A DNA stretch of 64,000 bases from Meghimatium bilineatum (taxonomy: Eukaryota > Mollusca > Gastropoda > Stylommatophora > Philomycidae). Below the pieces are notes generated by a model. That model was not told the DNA's origin. It did no database searches and was given only the letters and a program-made list of their open reading frames with translations. Of the stretch, positions 56,801 through 59,398 are shown piece after piece (position 1 is the first letter of the stretch; each line of letters begins with the position of its first letter). The position numbers and the translations under genes were made by a program. Where the stretch lies: positions 30,634,127-30,698,126 of the forward strand of contig CM067298.1 in assembly GCA_034231615.1 (NCBI GenBank). The letters run 5' to 3'.

Positions 56801-59398
56801 ACAATTTCATTATTTGCTAACTTTATTTTCTACAACTTTCCTTAATCTGTGCTTATTTGGTAAAATATCTCCCGGTGCAGATTTACCACTTCCACTAGTT
56901 TGAAATGAACAAAGTATTCTATCTTCTGAAATACTGTAGTTATGTCATCCTTGCTCTTTGATGTTTCAAAAGTCTCCTGTATAAGTGACTAGCATCAAAA
57001 GTACTTAAACCTAATCAAAGCCTCTTTCATTTTTGTTATTGAGCTAGTTGCAACTATAGTTATAATTGCAACTGCAATCTTTTGTCTCTGAATGGCTATA
57101 AATAAGAACAATAGCTTGTTCCACACTGTGTCCAGAAGTTGGACTTGTCATTATTTATCAGAAATTGTTTTTCGTTTGTTTTTCGTTCGCTCCATTGTAA
57201 CCATCACGGATATCCGTGCGATTTCTGCCGGGAGCGTGATTACGTTGTGCCACCGTTATGCGCCTTGTAGGCCTAGCACATCCGATTTCGGCATGCCTTG
57301 ACAATTCGGGTGGGCTACCCTTAGCCTGGTGACAGCCTCTATATCTGTCTCCAGGCACGCGTAGTGGAGACTCTTCGCCCAGACGATTTTTTGCTTTCGT
57401 CTGACTCGAACGAAGTGTTCCACTGTCTATGAACTTGCCTCGTGTAATTGGACGTGCTGTGCCTGTGCCCATTGGGTACTGAACCGTTTCTCATCCGTGA
57501 GCCTGGTTCCTTAAGGGGAAGAACTCAACAGAGGAGTTGGACCCTGGCTCTTTCGCCCTCTTAGCCGAGGTGTCATTCACCGACATCGTGTACCCCTTGT
57601 CCAAGTTCGAGTCTCACACCACGCGTTTGAGAGCAAGGCGTTCTCGAGCTGAGCGTCCTTGTCCCAATAGCGCCTGAGCCCATCAGGTACTGAACCCTTT
57701 CTCTCTTCAAGTGTATTTCCGGTGTAGGAAAACCTGACAGTAGAGTTGGGCCAGGGCTAAATCGTTGTCCCTTTTGTGCCTGAGTACTGAACCCTTTCTC
57801 TTCGCGAGCATATTTCCGGTTTAGGAAGGCTCGACATTAGAGTTGGGTTAGGTCTTCTTGCTTTACCAAACGCCAATGGATGGGTCTGGGTCTCTGCCTG
57901 TAAGGAACACAGGTAACTAGAAGCTCGTCTCGAGCTGACGGAGCTTGTAGTTCCCCTTTCCTAGGGACTTTTCACTTTCTATTTGCAGTTCGCGCTGCCC
58001 TCTAGCGCTGTTCTGCCATTTCATTGTTTCATTGTACTCGGTATGAAATCTATTTGTCTCTCGCCATGCATCTATCTTTACGTGCATTTTACATTGGCCG
58101 CCCCTCCAATGTTCGGACTGACTGACTTGCTTCACTGTATGTCAACAGTGTCGCTATATGTGGTGATGCTGGTGGTGTCGGAGATATTGTCTGTCTCTTG
58201 TGCAGTCAAATCTCTTTCCATCTGCTACCTCCACATTCTCGGACACGATCCCCAAATGATTTGGCCAGAATCAGCTCGAGCTGCTGTATTTCTGTTTCCA
58301 GGGTGCACCGCGTGGAGGTACATTTGGGATCTTGGTTATCTGCTAACCCTGGGTCCGCCTAGAGCAATGCGATCCCTTTGCACCCCATTTATCAGAAATA
58401 AAAAACAAATGTTAGAATAAAATCAATACATTTTTAAAGAGAAAAGATGTTTGTTTTAGTGAAAATGGAAGTGAATGTGTTTTCACATGTAGCCCGTAAA
58501 GAATTTGGATAACAAAATATCTCTTAGCGAACCATGAAGTATAAAGTTATCAAATTATGATTGATAGACATCAAAACCGATATATCGGTTATTGCTCCCG
58601 TACGGCTTCATTAGGCAACAAGCCTAATATCACTAATTTTCTGGAAGTATTCTGATATCAGTTTCCTGATGTTGATCATCCTTTGAAGCCAGTTGTAGTT
58701 GAAGAATCTCCCTCAACTGAGAATTGAACTGTGGATTGATGTATTAGAAATCGAGCACACTAATTACAACAATTCCTTCTACATGGGTACACTATTAAAC
58801 TTTTTCTGTTTAACTCAAGCCACAATGCTAAATAATCAATAAATTCCTTAGTTGCCTCTTAAGGACATGCCTGGAAAGAAGACGGCCCTATTATATGCAC
58901 GCTCAACTAGAAGTCCGTGCCCCAGGTTTCACACGAGCATATATTCAGTATAAAAGTTAAATATCAGCCCTGGAAACATTAGTTTATGTGGAATGTTAAT
59001 GCAATAATTATTTTATGTTTAACAGGAACTAGAAAGAAAAGCTGCAGAATTACAACGCAGGGAGCAAGAGATGAAAAATGCACAGTATACTGGAAGTAAG
59101 TTGGTCTGTCTGTCTGTCATAAATAATTTAGCATTTGATTAATTAAAAAAATACTTAGTTAAGAAATTAATTTTGTTCTAGCAACATGTAATTGGTAATA
59201 TATGAGCAGATGTGCACTATTTGAGAGAACATAAGTAGTGAAGAGAATCATTTTTTAAATATATTTCAGAACGTGAAAACAACTGGCCTCCTCTGCCAAA
59301 GTGCTTCCCTATAGGGCCATGCTTTTATCAAGATTTCAGTGTGGATATACCTTTAGAATTCCAGCGCATTGTAAAGTTTGCCTATTATTTGTGGGGTT
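35790..59398 (+). CDS. Scamp: Secretory carrier-associated membrane protein, first 5 exons (gene continues past right edge)
   Basis: SCAMPs are four-span membrane proteins of recycling endosomes, trans-Golgi and secretory vesicles that act in endocytosis and exocytosis; NPF motifs bind EH-domain proteins (family knowledge). Five plus-strand exons, 35790-35849, 43185-43283, 43698-43832, 59026-59095 and 59270-59398, join in frame into 164 residues. Visible parts in order: NPF at 7-9 and again at 40-42, a proline-rich stretch with PPPY at 77-80, a charged heptad-like coiled coil at about 90-116, and the SCAMP signature [20 protein letters not shown] at 125-144, followed by [16 protein letters not shown]. 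The last residues lead into the first membrane helix, whose exon must lie beyond 64000 or was not seen. Typical length is near 340 residues, so about half is here. Intron 3 is 15.2 kb and full of transposons. Confidence 0.95.
35850..36700. other. Scamp intron 1, 5' part
   Basis: AT-rich intron, no named element. Confidence 0.4.
36701..36766 (+). repeat. 33-bp tandem duplication
   Basis: agtgtcacacttttcatgtt...tattctg occurs twice in a row with a single difference (ctggta / ctagta), so it is recent. Confidence 0.9.
36944..37212 (-). mobile_element. SINE-2 copy, best preserved
   Basis: In sense direction it runs from cgcccatgtgtcgccgggcc through gaaaggggagcaaagaacag, gtcgtaaaaggcgactaagg, gatggagttggctgtcccat to a GAA-containing 3' end. 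It is inserted in the hAT-like element. Confidence 0.85.
37306..37379 (-). tRNA. tRNA-like sequence (pseudogene or SINE head)
   Basis: The minus strand begins GCCGCATTAGCGCAGTGGTT (A box TAGCGCAGTGG) and has GGTTCATTCCC (B box with T-loop TTCATTC). The D stem GCGC/GCGC and T stem TGGG/CCCA pair. The acceptor stem pairs at five of seven positions and the anticodon stem poorly. The anticodon position reads CGC. Degeneration and location in a hAT element argue against a working tRNA. Confidence 0.5.
37671..37835. other. Scamp intron 1 spacer
   Basis: Short spacer between the hAT-like element and the next tRNA-like repeat; nothing seen. Confidence 0.4.
37836..37968 (-). mobile_element. tRNA-derived SINE-like sequence
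   Basis: The minus strand has an A box in CCTAGTGTAGTGGTTAAGG and a B box in GGTTCAAATCC about 35 bp on, followed by a non-tRNA body (GTGTACAAGGTGGATTTTTT). This is the head-plus-body plan of a tRNA-derived SINE. Only one copy is in the window, so family status is inferred. Confidence 0.55.
38190..38974 (+). mobile_element. TIR element with promoter-like end, copy 2 (785 bp)
   Basis: Ends agttctccactgtg (38190) and cacagtggagaact (to 38974) are exact 14-bp inverted repeats, with similarity continuing outward (agtacag / ctgtact). 38690-38974 matches copy 1 in reverse. Close to the left end it has gctataaatagcac and ggtgacgtcacgg. At 38465-38512 a diverged, inverted copy of this sub-terminal region suggests an inner end. 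Near 38380 the plus strand reads [11 protein letters not shown], like the first metal-binding motif of a THAP domain, which is only a hint. Confidence 0.7.
38514..38583 (+). repeat. Degenerate telomere-like (CCCTAA) array
   Basis: About ten irregular units of taatccc / taaccc / taaaccc type (ccctaaccctaatccctatt). Variable unit length shows it is interstitial and decayed. It lies inside the TIR element and is absent from copy 1. Confidence 0.75.
38975..39959. other. Scamp intron 1 segment
   Basis: AT-rich. A 144-codon plus-strand frame at 39628-40062 ([20 protein letters not shown]...) has low-complexity composition typical of chance in AT-rich DNA and runs into the repeat at 39960. I do not call it a gene. 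Confidence 0.4.
40243..40402 (+). mobile_element. SINE-1 copy
   Basis: Runs from gcagaagatggatgtgtcag through ggcgcaaataaaacggcaac and ggaccatggtcctgctacaa to cagaagaagaagaag. The homologous unoccupied site is near 56740. Confidence 0.85.
40521..41416 (+). mobile_element. TTAA-flanked non-autonomous element (piggyBac type), 896 bp
   Basis: The tips ttaacctttagcaagc (40521) and gcgtgttaaaggttaa (to 41416) are imperfect inverted repeats including TTAA, and the unoccupied site near 56865 has no such insert. No transposase frame. A fragment of a second copy starts ttaaccttaggcatgc at 44207. Class is inferred from TTAA and inverted tips. Confidence 0.8.
41482..41644 (+). mobile_element. SINE-1 copy with 10-bp target duplication
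   Basis: Direct repeat aaataattat at 41482-41491 and 41635-41644 bounds a 143-bp unit from aaccagccaaagacggatgt to a (GAA)5-like tail. This fixes the unit length and shows the (GAA)n end is the 3' end. Confidence 0.92.
41716..43184. other. Scamp intron 1, 3' part
   Basis: AT-rich; an 18-bp tandem repeat (gattcagaagcttagaga) near 42521-42556. No element or gene recognised. Confidence 0.45.
43185..43283 (+). CDS. Scamp: Scamp exon 2
   Basis: Acceptor caatag|GAT and donor CAG|gtaact; 99 nt in phase 0. It encodes [20 protein letters not shown] then [13 protein letters not shown], with the second NPF motif. Residues 21-53. Confidence 0.92.
43284..43697. other. Scamp intron 2
   Basis: A 414-bp intron, canonical GT...AG, with no insertions seen. 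Confidence 0.7.
43698..43832 (+). CDS. Scamp: Scamp exon 3
   Basis: Acceptor tttaag|GGT and donor GAG|gtatgt; 135 nt in phase 0. It encodes a Pro-rich segment ([26 protein letters not shown]) and the start of the coiled coil, [11 protein letters not shown]. Residues 54-98. Confidence 0.93.
44207..44446 (+). mobile_element. Fragment of the TTAA element, copy 2
   Basis: Starts ttaaccttaggcatgc and is homologous to 40521-40760 (agatatttaaataatattt, cacatat.cataaagaatt, gcatatattggtgtaa). Its right end could not be found. The ATGGCG ORF at 44746 may lie within it or beside it. Confidence 0.65.
44746..44880 (+). CDS. Candidate first coding exon or gene relic inside Scamp intron 3, unrecognised
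   Basis: An ATG in a good context (acaaaATGGCG) opens a 97-codon frame to 45036. The first 45 residues ([20 protein letters not shown], then [20 protein letters not shown] and HGITQ) look like ordinary soluble protein. The sequence after CAG|gtgttg at 44880 turns into a hydrophobic, Cys/Phe-rich chance-like translation. That pattern suits a first exon ending at a weak donor. I do not recognise the family and see no second exon. It lies near a fragment of a TTAA element, so it could be part of a transposon. The alternative is a chance ORF. Confidence 0.25.
45185..45438 (-). mobile_element. LINE 3' fragment, (TTA)-tail family
   Basis: Minus strand: [20 protein letters not shown] then [20 protein letters not shown] and [11 protein letters not shown]. 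It directly joins the 3' end of LINE B at about 45439. Confidence 0.82.
45446..46199 (-). pseudogene. LINE B RNase H and C-terminal Cys/His region
   Basis: A 211-codon frame from 46199: [17 protein letters not shown], then [20 protein letters not shown] with the catalytic Glu region, [17 protein letters not shown] (Asp), and [20 protein letters not shown] (His and Asp of the RNase H site). After a frame change, [20 protein letters not shown] gives the C..H...C knuckle typical of LINE C termini. The RNase H frame itself is intact. Confidence 0.88.
46324..47759 (-). pseudogene. LINE B reverse transcriptase
   Basis: Minus-strand order: [40 protein letters not shown] near 47490, [40 protein letters not shown] and [11 protein letters not shown] near 47065 (intact YADD). 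The thumb then has [12 protein letters not shown] and [12 protein letters not shown], and [20 protein letters not shown] near 46720. Frame changes near 47050, 47340 and 46800 break it. Confidence 0.9.
48002..49006 (-). pseudogene. LINE B APE-type endonuclease and linker
   Basis: The frame from 49006 reads [40 protein letters not shown] (catalytic Glu in QETH) and [20 protein letters not shown] (Asp and Asn of GDFN). A shift follows near 48550; the linker carries [20 protein letters not shown] and [20 protein letters not shown]. Conserved endonuclease residues are present but the frame is not continuous. Confidence 0.88.
49263..49575 (-). mobile_element. LINE 3' fragment, (TTA)-tail family
   Basis: Minus-strand [20 protein letters not shown] near 49510-49570, and below it [14 protein letters not shown] near 49440-49510, which is out of order relative to the family (rearranged). 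It abuts the TTAA MITE. Confidence 0.7.
49576..49801 (+). mobile_element. 226-bp TTAA MITE with long inverted repeats
   Basis: TTAA at 49576-49579 and 49798-49801. The tips ccccttagctgtggagctat and (reverse right end) ccccttagctgtagaggtat stay complementary for over 30 bp, including cttaaggata on both sides. No ORF. TTAA target and tip structure indicate mobilisation by a piggyBac-type transposase (inference). Its tips differ from those of the autonomous copies in this window. Confidence 0.9.
49802..50121 (+). mobile_element. LINE 3' part, plus strand (older, interrupted)
   Basis: Plus-strand [20 protein letters not shown], then [20 protein letters not shown] and RQRMTMK.MDGRS, the LINE tail R.KWFGHLMR.....R..RGRP pattern. 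It matches 55690-55920. It is cut at gccatagccct by the RNase H LINE and resumes at 51250. Confidence 0.78.
50122..51238 (-). mobile_element. RNase-H LINE 3' end, with 11-bp target duplication
   Basis: Bounded by the direct repeat gccatagccct at 50111-50121 and 51239-51249. The minus strand encodes RNase [24 protein letters not shown] (Asp to Asn change in the first TD position), [16 protein letters not shown], then [20 protein letters not shown], and a Cys/His knuckle [19 protein letters not shown] near 50290-50340. It ends with a (AAC)n-type tail at 50122. 5'-truncated. A different family from LINE B. Confidence 0.9.
51250..52243. other. Scamp intron 3 segment with end of an interrupted LINE
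   Basis: 51250-51330 continues the LINE cut at 50121 (ttcaatcctgcgacacctaa, aaaaacagagaaaaggcaat; compare 55939-55985). The rest is AT-rich with nothing I can name. Confidence 0.5.
52244..52632 (+). mobile_element. 389-bp MITE with about 31-bp inverted repeats
   Basis: Left ttggcacggtacaagaagaa and right (reverse) ttggtacagtacaaaaagaa are inverted repeats that continue through gtgcctacatt. tta lies outside both ends. The middle has a second, weaker dyad (cttctgccagatg / catctggcagctg). No coding capacity. Superfamily not assigned. Confidence 0.8.
52645..52876 (-). mobile_element. SINE-2 copy
   Basis: aggttagcaggatgtagtca, gagacagccaactccacccc, cctccttagtctcttcttac and tcccctttcaggtcctgaca. 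It lies 12 bp from the MITE. Confidence 0.75.
52877..55129. other. Scamp intron 3 segment without recognisable features
   Basis: 2.2 kb of AT-rich DNA. A minus-strand frame at 54555-54764 has two CxxC-like pairs ([13 protein letters not shown]) but no family resemblance. I see no gene here. Confidence 0.45.
55130..55990 (+). mobile_element. LINE copy with internal deletion, plus strand
   Basis: Starts with an endonuclease beginning, [20 protein letters not shown], then jumps to RT near the catalytic box ([24 protein letters not shown] for FADD) and runs to the tail [24 protein letters not shown], [16 protein letters not shown] and [13 protein letters not shown]. The 3' end matches 49802-50121. 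The RT centre is missing. Confidence 0.8.
55991..56454. other. Scamp intron 3 segment
   Basis: AT-rich; a short (GT)n run at 56111-56127. Nothing else. Confidence 0.45.
56455..57008 (+). repeat. Interspersed repeat, copy 2 (uninterrupted)
   Basis: Second copy of the repeat at 39960-41715, without the three insertions, so it serves as an unoccupied reference for them. No ORF or terminal structure recognised. Confidence 0.72.
57153..58399 (-). mobile_element. GC-rich retroposon, about 1.2 kb, 13-bp target duplication, unclassified
   Basis: Direct repeat atttatcagaaat at 57153-57165 and 58387-58399 encloses 57166-58386. Read on the minus strand the element ends in an A/C-rich tail (gagcgaacgaaaaacaaacg). 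The sequence is clearly richer in G and C than the intron. It has three diverged direct repeats, each with ggtactgaacc.tttctc (57475, 57686, 57783), and a 14-bp palindrome cacggatatccgtg near its 3' end. A truncated sibling lies at 26317. No RT, transposase or rRNA/tRNA signature was seen. A minus-strand frame (57158-57472) is open over 104 codons ([20 protein letters not shown]) but is unrecognised. Confidence 0.75.
58400..59025. other. Scamp intron 3, 3' end
   Basis: Holds a 14-bp palindrome accgatatatcggt near 58579 and a decayed stretch near 58850-58950 that recalls SINE-2 (ccttagttgcctcttaagga). No exon before 59026. Confidence 0.45.
59026..59095 (+). CDS. Scamp: Scamp exon 4
   Basis: Acceptor taacag|GAA and donor GGAA|gtaagt; 70 nt. 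It encodes [20 protein letters not shown] then YTG plus one base. It continues the exon 3 coiled coil in register despite the 15.2-kb intron. Residues 99-121. Confidence 0.94.
59270..59398 (+). CDS. Scamp: Scamp exon 5
   Basis: Acceptor tttcag|AA and donor GGTT|gtaagt; 129 nt. It encodes (K)[20 protein letters not shown], then [20 protein letters not shown] and WG, the conserved amphipathic segment before membrane helix 1. The last codon is split one and two, so the next exon must start in phase 1. Residues 122-164. Confidence 0.95.

What the first reader, a model, noticed from the sequence alone, without database searches (positions are those of the whole stretch)
57153..58399. Unclassified GC-rich retroposon with target duplication, palindrome and internal direct repeats
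The 1.2-kb body between two copies of atttatcagaaat has a base composition unlike the intron, three diverged direct repeats (near 57475, 57686, 57783), a 14-bp palindrome near its A/C-rich 3' end, and no recognisable RT, transposase or tRNA head. A second, 5'-truncated insertion with its own target duplication (26317-26448) shows it moves by target-primed copying and that the 3' end is the part retained. The 3' end resembles the cggatgtg..aggcc block found in SINE-1 and SINE-2, which suggests a shared machinery. It may be a new non-autonomous family, or a LINE ORF1/UTR piece of an unknown LINE.
Basis: partly seen in the sequence, partly recalled or inferred. Interest (0 to 1): 0.72.

Follow-up and report, generated by a model that had tools for sequence, protein, structure and literature searches.

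The report
Retroposon with predicted self-cutting head
This is one copy of a 1.2-kb non-coding "copy-and-paste" element in what is probably a mollusc genome; its first 140 bases are predicted to form a self-cutting RNA that would trim the element to its exact start, and its last 128 bases match a separate tiny element that appears to move on its own.

Summary
A 1,221-nt GC-rich body lies between exact 13-bp target duplications and reads on the minus strand (58386 to 57166). The genome (1.61 Gb; mollusc-type haemocyanin clusters) holds at least 40 near-identical copies. The 21 copies first examined begin at the same base; 41 of 42 complete-5' copies in the wider set have target duplications. 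A motif scan of the whole window finds one match, whose cut site is the element's first base; 300 shuffled windows give none. Rfam's only match in the element is drz-agam-1, below its cut-off. One relative, 79% identical, keeps the fold with two compensatory P2 changes (hand alignment; the automatic alignment shows none). The 26317-26448 insertion is probably not a truncated copy: its block with non-element DNA before it matches 383 places, against 13 at a control position. It looks like a separate ~128-nt SINE-like family forming the long element's 3' end, homologous to the SINE-1/SINE-2 tails. No long ORF, longer version or partner LINE was found. Self-cleavage is predicted, not assayed. New variant of a known kind (R2 SIDE, NARTc).

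The parts
57166..58386 (-). whole retroposon copy, 5' end at 58386, 3' end at 57166
   Evidence: TSDs; at least 40 copies in own genome; 21 of 21 copies examined align from nt 1
57153..57165 (.). target-site duplication, copy at the 3' end of the element
58387..58399 (.). [quoted passage not shown]
58247..58386 (-). predicted HDV-like self-cleaving ribozyme (element nt 1-140); predicted cut between 58387 and 58386
   Evidence: Rfam drz-agam-1 24.2 bits, below cut-off; anchored motif test; scan of window and 300 shuffles
58380..58386 (-). P1 5' strand GGGGTGC, the first 7 nt of the element
58300..58306 (-). P1 3' strand GCACCCT, followed by GG (possible P1.1)
58321..58331 (-). P2 5' strand GATCCCAAATG
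58247..58258 (-). P2 3' strand CATTTGGGGATC
58307..58319 (-). P3 (ACC/GGT) with 7-nt L3 loop TCCACGC
58266..58294 (-). P4 hairpin
58259..58265 (-). J4/2 GCCAAAT with the candidate catalytic C (58264)
57769..57855 (-). internal direct repeat copy (about 90 nt)
   Evidence: count of a repeat motif varies between genomic copies
57672..57758 (-). internal direct repeat copy
57461..57550 (-). internal direct repeat copy, more diverged (upper limit by eye)
   Evidence: one search gives 57461-57492
57166..57295 (-). 3' domain (starts CATGCCGAAATCGG), same sequence as the short SINE-like family, homologous to the tails of SINE-1 and SINE-2
57205..57218 (.). 14-bp palindrome CACGGATATCCGTG, a hairpin in the predicted fold of the 3' domain
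57166..57190 (-). A/C-rich 3' tail; most other copies examined end in AAAC repeats
26317..26448 (+). copy of the short (about 128 nt) SINE-like family
26308..26316 (.). target duplication TTAAATACC of the short element, left
26449..26457 (.). target duplication TTAAATACC of the short element, right

Best explanation
A non-autonomous non-LTR retroposon with three modules: a predicted HDV-like self-cleaving ribozyme (nt 1-140), an apparently non-coding body of about 960 nt with internal repeats, and a 3' domain of about 128 nt ending in AAAC repeats. Proposed cycle: (1) the element is co-transcribed inside another RNA [inferred]; (2) the ribozyme cuts just upstream of its own first G, giving a precise 5' end without a promoter-defined start [predicted from fold and cut-site coincidence, not assayed]; (3) an APE-type LINE reverse transcriptase supplied in trans recognises the 3' domain and primes at a nicked site, helped by tail-target microhomology (21 of 41 duplications begin AC) [tail and duplications seen; enzyme inferred]; (4) the second cut leaves duplications of 9-16 bp [seen]. 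The 3' domain is portable: it also occurs as a 128-nt SINE-like unit and, more diverged, at the end of SINE-1 and SINE-2.
For: 40 of 40 scored matches at 97-100% identity. 21 of 21 copies examined align from nt 1 with duplications of 10-14 bp. Of 53 rows reaching the 3' end (duplicate loci dropped; 4 rows at locus edges), 42 start at nt 1, and 41 of those 42 have duplications of 9-16 bp, mode 12; 21 of these 41 begin AC. Eight copies with 6.9-7.9 kb of 3' flank show no common extension next to the element. Rfam's only hit in the element at E up to 5 is drz-agam-1, E 0.033 for 1,271 nt. Motif anchored at nt 1: found in the real sequence; of 60,000 dinucleotide shuffles 12 pair as well and 0 also have the CNAA junction. 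Unanchored scan (L3 fixed as TNCNCGN) of both strands of 64 kb: one match, cut site 58386, the duplication-defined first base; 300 shuffled windows: 0. A relative 79% identical over the ribozyme passes the strict matcher with a different P2, 10 of 11 P2 pairs kept, two by changes on both sides. Consensus of 21 copies: longest sense stop-free stretch 90 codons; seven stop-free stretches of the window's copy gave no Pfam match over cut-off. 3' domain: a model built only from SINE-1/2/3 finds 57239-57299 at E 5e-6 and 26317-26374 at E 3e-4.
Against: No cleavage assay. The Rfam score (24.2) is below the gathering score (37), is E 1.6 for the whole window; the genome-wide RF01787 search put no match over cut-off, and 11 of 14 control genomes also gave hits at E up to 10. 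On the automatic alignment of 50 5' ends (37 distinct) no pair changes on both sides, and the covariation score is reached by 498 of 500 shuffles; the two changes in P2 come from a hand alignment of one relative. The unconstrained fold is ordinary (z -0.70, 47 of 200 shuffles as good) and pairs the 5' end differently (that program shows no pseudoknots). 20 of 50 individual 5' ends fail the strict matcher, including all five drawn by the Rfam search. No autonomous partner was found. The motif definition was written after seeing the sequence. Single copies have longer sense stop-free stretches (up to 130 codons).
Confidence: 0.77

Rival explanations
1. Strict SIDE: the whole element is an internally deleted LINE, so ribozyme, body and 3' domain all come from one autonomous LINE (for example of the I/Ingi/Nimb or RTE group) still in the genome or recently lost. 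It would work as in the best explanation; only the origin differs.
For: R2 SIDE, NARTc and RIME are described as shortened LINEs with the 5' ribozyme region of the parent (PMC3414825 abstract and discussion; PMC4035085 passages); the R2/R1 hybrid SIDE joins parts of two LINEs. A 30-codon stop-free frame lies just after the ribozyme. APE and RNase H domains and a sub-threshold RT match lie at 45564-49018 in the window.
Against: In the capped list, where only 9 upstream bases are shown, no upstream sequence recurs more than twice, as a LINE family would; the last-20-nt search gave 21 places, none recognised as a LINE; no common extension in 8 long loci. The 3' domain matches a separate SINE-like family instead.
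Confidence: 0.4
2. The 5' fold is a decayed or chance resemblance; the fixed 5' end comes from a promoter that starts transcription at the first G.
For: Sub-threshold Rfam score, ordinary unconstrained fold, no both-sided changes and a low covariation score on the automatic alignment.
Against: Exact coincidence of predicted cut site and first base, 0 of 300 shuffled windows matching; 0 of 60,000 anchored shuffles with the full motif; fold kept in a 79% relative with compensatory P2 changes. No tRNA or other Pol III RNA family in the element by Rfam.
Confidence: 0.15
3. The 128-nt 'short family' is not a family but a hot spot where reverse transcription of the 1.2-kb RNA stops.
For: Same sequence as the 3' domain at 94-100% identity; a structured RNA could stop an RT (fold). 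Five of 15 non-long copies carry the long family's base.
Against: 383 pattern matches against 13 at a control position 100 nt upstream; most of those 13 look by eye like indel variants of full copies, and some of the 383 may be too. 10 of 15 non-long copies have a C where 47 of 47 long copies have an A.
Confidence: 0.12
4. Processed copy of a host RNA (pseudogene).
For: Body of unknown origin, with no Pfam match over cut-off and no Rfam match apart from the ribozyme.
Against: Dozens of copies with the same 5' end, AAAC repeats and not poly(A) as tail, no long frame in the consensus.
Confidence: 0.02

Closest known systems
R2 SIDE and R2/R1 hybrid SIDE of Drosophila (PMC3414825; abstract and discussion read)
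   Same: 5' HDV-like ribozyme, non-coding, 3' end for recognition by a LINE protein in trans; the hybrid SIDE also joins a ribozyme to a 3' end of another element
   Different: SIDEs sit at fixed 28S rDNA sites with rDNA co-transcription; this one is dispersed (by eye no shared site in the flanks printed), has a body of about 960 nt with repeats, and no autonomous partner was found
NARTc / RIME / SIDER of trypanosomatids (PMC4035085; start of abstract in the listing and passages)
   Same: short non-autonomous retroposons headed by an HDV-like ribozyme (Pr77), dispersed in the genome
   Different: protist hosts with polycistronic transcription; ribozymes of about 80 nt whose partner L1Tc/ingi is known; here J1/2 is about 48 nt long and the host is an animal
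Persaeus SIDE of the CR1 LINE Zenon in Lepidoptera (PMC6740152; abstract and passages)
   Same: high-copy, dispersed non-autonomous element of an animal LINE, conserved 5' and 3' ends and a variable middle
   Different: the word ribozyme does not occur in the main text; about 270-350 nt where lengths were seen, poly(A) end, known partner
drz-agam-1 ribozyme (Rfam RF01787)
   Same: P2-P3-L3-P4-J4/2 aligned over the full model
   Different: 24.2 bits against a gathering score of 37; the P1 5' strand proposed here lies about 48 nt further upstream than in the model's alignment (long J1/2)
SINE-1 and SINE-2 of this window
   Same: homologous 3' domain from GCCGAARNCGGATGTG onwards
   Different: tails of AAG repeats, no ribozyme match by Rfam or strict scan, much shorter

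Membership tests
HDV-like self-cleaving ribozyme | nested double-pseudoknot pairing P1-P2-P3-P4 with cut site 5' of P1 | tested here: met
   one match in 64 kb at exactly the element's first base, 0 in 300 shuffled windows
HDV-like self-cleaving ribozyme | score above the Rfam gathering cut-off | tested here: not met
   24.2 vs 37 bits; no match over cut-off in the genome among 56 scored candidates
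HDV-like self-cleaving ribozyme | covariation in helices among relatives | tested here: inconclusive
   0 both-sided pairs on the automatic alignment; two by hand in one relative
HDV-like self-cleaving ribozyme | self-cleavage in vitro, dependent on J4/2 C | not testable with these tools
   -
SIDE (internally deleted LINE derivative) | 5' and 3' ends shared with an autonomous LINE | tested here: inconclusive
   not found; the genome could not be searched exhaustively
SIDE (internally deleted LINE derivative) | no functional ORF | tested here: met
   longest sense stop-free stretch 90 codons in the consensus; no Pfam match over cut-off in 7 stretches of the window copy
SIDE (internally deleted LINE derivative) | ribozyme at the precise 5' junction (R2/L1Tc type) | tested here: met
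   predicted fold only
R2 SIDE | insertion in 28S rDNA | tested here: not met
   flanks printed share no common site (by eye)
SINE | Pol III head (tRNA, 7SL, 5S) | tested here: not met
   no such Rfam match in the element or in 26300-26465; A and B boxes were not scanned by tool
SINE | 3' domain shared with other SINEs, target duplications | tested here: met
LINE | RT reading frame or longer RT-bearing version | tested here: not met
   no RT match in 7 stop-free stretches; 8 of 8 long loci show no common extension
Retrozyme | hammerhead ribozymes | tested here: not met
   no hammerhead Rfam match in the element at E up to 5

The most novel reading that the evidence does not exclude
In this probably molluscan genome a portable 3' recognition domain of about 128 nt moves alone and has also been joined to a ribozyme-headed, promoter-free body: the 5' end is set by RNA self-cleavage from co-transcripts instead of by a Pol III promoter. 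That would be a modular alternative to the classical SINE, a high-copy, dispersed animal retroposon class made of ribozyme plus SINE tail rather than an internally deleted LINE.
Probability: 0.35. Interest if true: 0.75.

Novelty: new variant of a known kind. Interest (0 to 1): 0.62.

Why it matters
HDV-like ribozymes are known at the 5' ends of R2 and L1Tc/ingi elements (papers above; other LINEs by recall), and the discussion of PMC3414825 calls non-LTR SIDEs rare in general. A dispersed family with many near-identical copies in an animal gives a natural set for testing how self-cleaved RNAs are picked up by LINE machinery in trans, and how a retroposon without its own promoter could spread. 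The shared 3' domain, apparently mobile by itself, lets one ask what an RT needs at the 3' end. In the listings (titles and starts of abstracts) of seven searches of the paper library I saw non-autonomous retroposons with HDV-like ribozymes only from Drosophila R2/R1 and trypanosomatids; one search returned nothing, and the library lacks most subscription journals.

Tried and rejected
Tried: Rfam on the whole window and on parts; viral contigs and genome contigs for the 3' block or a 27-nt piece of the ribozyme region, no match; RF01787 genome search for another ribozyme-bearing element, which gave only this family and diverged relatives, 5 matches of 56 scored of 79,616 candidates. Two stretches next to diverged relatives were fetched but not analysed further; the loci already held showed simple repeats and no long frame other than repeats. 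Pattern searches with 'not the element' codes for a LINE sharing the 3' block or the last 20 nt: no LINE recognised. An initial idea that copies matching only 189-1235 of the query were 5' parts of a LINE was wrong: they are full length with a small indel. A family-wide count by the 5'-terminal pattern was asked many times and never answered.

Considered and rejected: processed pseudogene; DNA transposon (duplications of variable 9-16 bp, one-sided tail; recalled criteria); tRNA-headed SINE; truncated copy at 26317.

Bias: the 40 matches and are the best-scoring ones, so identity (and completeness) is overstated. In the set drawn by the 3' end, 23 of 30 loci hold a copy starting at nt 1 and 7 are truncated. 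In one search the locus L047 was mis-joined by my script and counted as not complete. Loci L002-L008 and L029 were dropped as duplicates; one search dropped L002-L008 only, so the window's copy counts twice there.

Full report
What is there. The stretch 57153-58399 is one insertion of a 1,221-nt element flanked by an exact 13-bp duplication. It reads on the minus strand: the 5' end is at 58386 and the A/C-rich 3' tail at 57166. It is 50.6% G+C; the other 1-kb windows are 26-45%.

It is a family. A search with the element scored the 40 best of 4,588 candidates; all 40 are 97-100% identical over 1.05-1.25 kb. The eight that matched only from about 189 onwards proved full length with a small indel, and these 8 of 8 loci, with 6.9-7.9 kb of 3' flank, show no common extension next to the element, only scattered matches elsewhere. 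In 21 of 21 copies the alignment starts at nt 1 and a duplication of 10-14 bp is present. Of 53 rows that reach the 3' end in a wider set, 42 start at nt 1 and 41 of these 42 have duplications of 9-16 bp, mode 12; 21 of the 41 begin AC, and the tail is mostly AAAC repeats. In the set drawn by the 3' end alone, 23 of 30 loci hold a complete copy and 7 are 5'-truncated at different points. These sets are best-scoring copies, so identity and completeness are biased upwards.

Host. The haemocyanin domain PF14830 gives 50 matches in clusters on two contigs, and 0 of 14 control genomes ring. The control genomes that the tool names are microbial, so this control says nothing about other animals; that the domain marks molluscs is recalled. 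I infer a mollusc.

The head is a predicted ribozyme. Reading the 5' end by eye suggested the HDV-like fold: P1 GGGGTGC/GCACCCT, P2 GATCCCAAATG/CATTTGGGGATC, P3 ACC/GGT with loop TCCACGC, a P4 hairpin, and a J4/2 GCCAAAT. Rfam's only match in the element, at E up to 5, is drz-agam-1, 24.2 bits, E 0.033, covering the whole model with these P2, P3, P4 and J4/2; the P1 5' strand proposed here lies further upstream because J1/2 is about 48 nt. The score is below the gathering score of 37 and E is 1.6 for the whole window. PMC3414825 (discussion) calls the J1/2 loop of R2 ribozymes highly variable.

Chance tests. With the first 7 nt fixed by the duplication, the real sequence has one solution; of 60,000 dinucleotide shuffles 12 pair as well and 0 also have the CNAA junction. 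Without that anchor, but with L3 fixed as TNCNCGN, scanning both strands of the 64-kb window gives one match, and its cut site is 58386, the element's first base as defined independently by the duplication. 300 shuffled windows give none. The descriptor was written after seeing the sequence, so these numbers describe specificity, not a blind prediction.

Conservation. Of 50 5' ends, 30 pass the strict descriptor; 20 have at least one failure, including all five loci drawn by the Rfam search. On the automatic alignment (37 distinct rows) 95.8% of cells pair, against 32-46% when partners are slid, but no pair changes on both sides, and 498 of 500 shuffles reach the covariation score; the copies are too alike to test covariation. 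One relative, L026:61-205, is 79% identical over the ribozyme, passes the strict descriptor with a different P2, and by hand alignment keeps 10 of 11 P2 pairs, two of them by changes on both sides. The unconstrained fold is ordinary (z -0.70) and does not show the ribozyme, which that program cannot represent. The RF01787 genome search found 5 matches of 56 scored of 79,616 candidates, none over cut-off, all of this family or relatives, while 11 of 14 control genomes also rang at E up to 10.

The body carries no recognised gene. The consensus of 21 copies has no sense stop-free stretch above 90 codons; single copies reach 130. Seven stop-free stretches of the window's copy gave no Pfam match over cut-off; two weak ones (E 0.036 and 0.17) are below it. 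A repeat motif occurs 2 times in 7, 3 times in 27 and 4 times in 5 of 39 copies counted.

The 3' domain is a module. The last ~128 nt align with the ends of SINE-1 and SINE-2; a model built only from SINE-1/2/3 copies finds 57239-57299 at E 5e-6 and 26317-26374 at E 3e-4, so the homology is independently supported for the first 60 nt of the domain. A model that includes this element finds 24 further matches outside the family in 184 kb of held loci. The 26317-26448 insertion is probably not a truncated copy: a pattern requiring the 25-nt start of the domain with non-element DNA before it (up to 2 mismatches) matches 383 places, reversed-pattern control 0. The same kind of pattern 100 nt upstream matches 13 places, most of which look by eye like indel variants of full copies; some of the 383 may be such variants too. 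Of 13 short copies looked at (12 fetched plus the window's), 11 show a duplication of 9-15 bp within about one base of the same start; in L073 and L074 the script's match was elsewhere or only 6 bp. 10 of 15 non-long copies carry C where 47 of 47 long ones carry A; 5 of 15 carry A.

Partner. In the capped list only 9 upstream bases are shown, and none recurs more than twice; a search on the last 20 nt gave 21 places, none recognised as a LINE. APE and RNase H domains and a sub-threshold RT match lie at 45564-49018, and Ingi, Nimbus and RTE LINEs are reported in gastropods (PMC11203168, passages). In trypanosomatids L1Tc carries an HDV-like ribozyme (PMC4035085, passages). The partner is therefore a guess.

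Mechanism. Shown: multi-copy, fixed 5' end, tail, duplications, no long frame in the consensus, homologous 3' domain. Predicted: self-cleavage at the first base. Inferred: co-transcription, release by cleavage, target-primed reverse transcription by a LINE enzyme in trans through the 3' domain.

Comparison. It works like R2 SIDEs (PMC3414825, abstract and discussion) and NARTc/SIDER (PMC4035085, passages). It is not an R2 SIDE, since it is dispersed; it cannot be filed as a SIDE of a known LINE without the partner; no Pol III head was found, so it is not a classical SINE. Hence: new variant of a known kind.

Noticed in passing
26317-26448 and 383 pattern matches in the genome: A separate ~128-nt SINE-like unit equal to the 3' domain, with no Pol III-type Rfam match; how such short units are transcribed is unexplained.
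   Followed up: partly
15011-15170, 40242-40401, 41497-41636: SINE-2 copies start, by eye, at GCCGAAGAYGG, the position homologous to the start of the short unit, suggesting a common module boundary across families.
   Followed up: partly
18154-19825 and 59610-61281: Two inverted piggyBac-like elements (PF13843), 97% identical over 1,672 bases; the second has a 618-codon stop-free frame.
   Followed up: no
45564-49018: LINE remains on the minus strand: APE and RNase H domains over cut-off, RT below cut-off; the strict ribozyme scan found nothing there.
   Followed up: partly
29545-30036 and 62644-62973: Stretches that look like parts of mariner-like transposases; only the first was run against Pfam.
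   Followed up: no
17902-18087 (also 11815-11996, 1664-1848): By eye an RTE-like 3' end; at 17902-18087 it interrupts the first piggyBac copy, whose matches resume on both sides.
   Followed up: no
L062 and L063: Long CAGCATGA-type minisatellite and ATCT arrays downstream of 5' parts of diverged relatives of the element.
   Followed up: no
37307-37379: tRNA-like Rfam match (31.4 bits, minus strand) about 100 bases from a SINE-1 copy.
   Followed up: no
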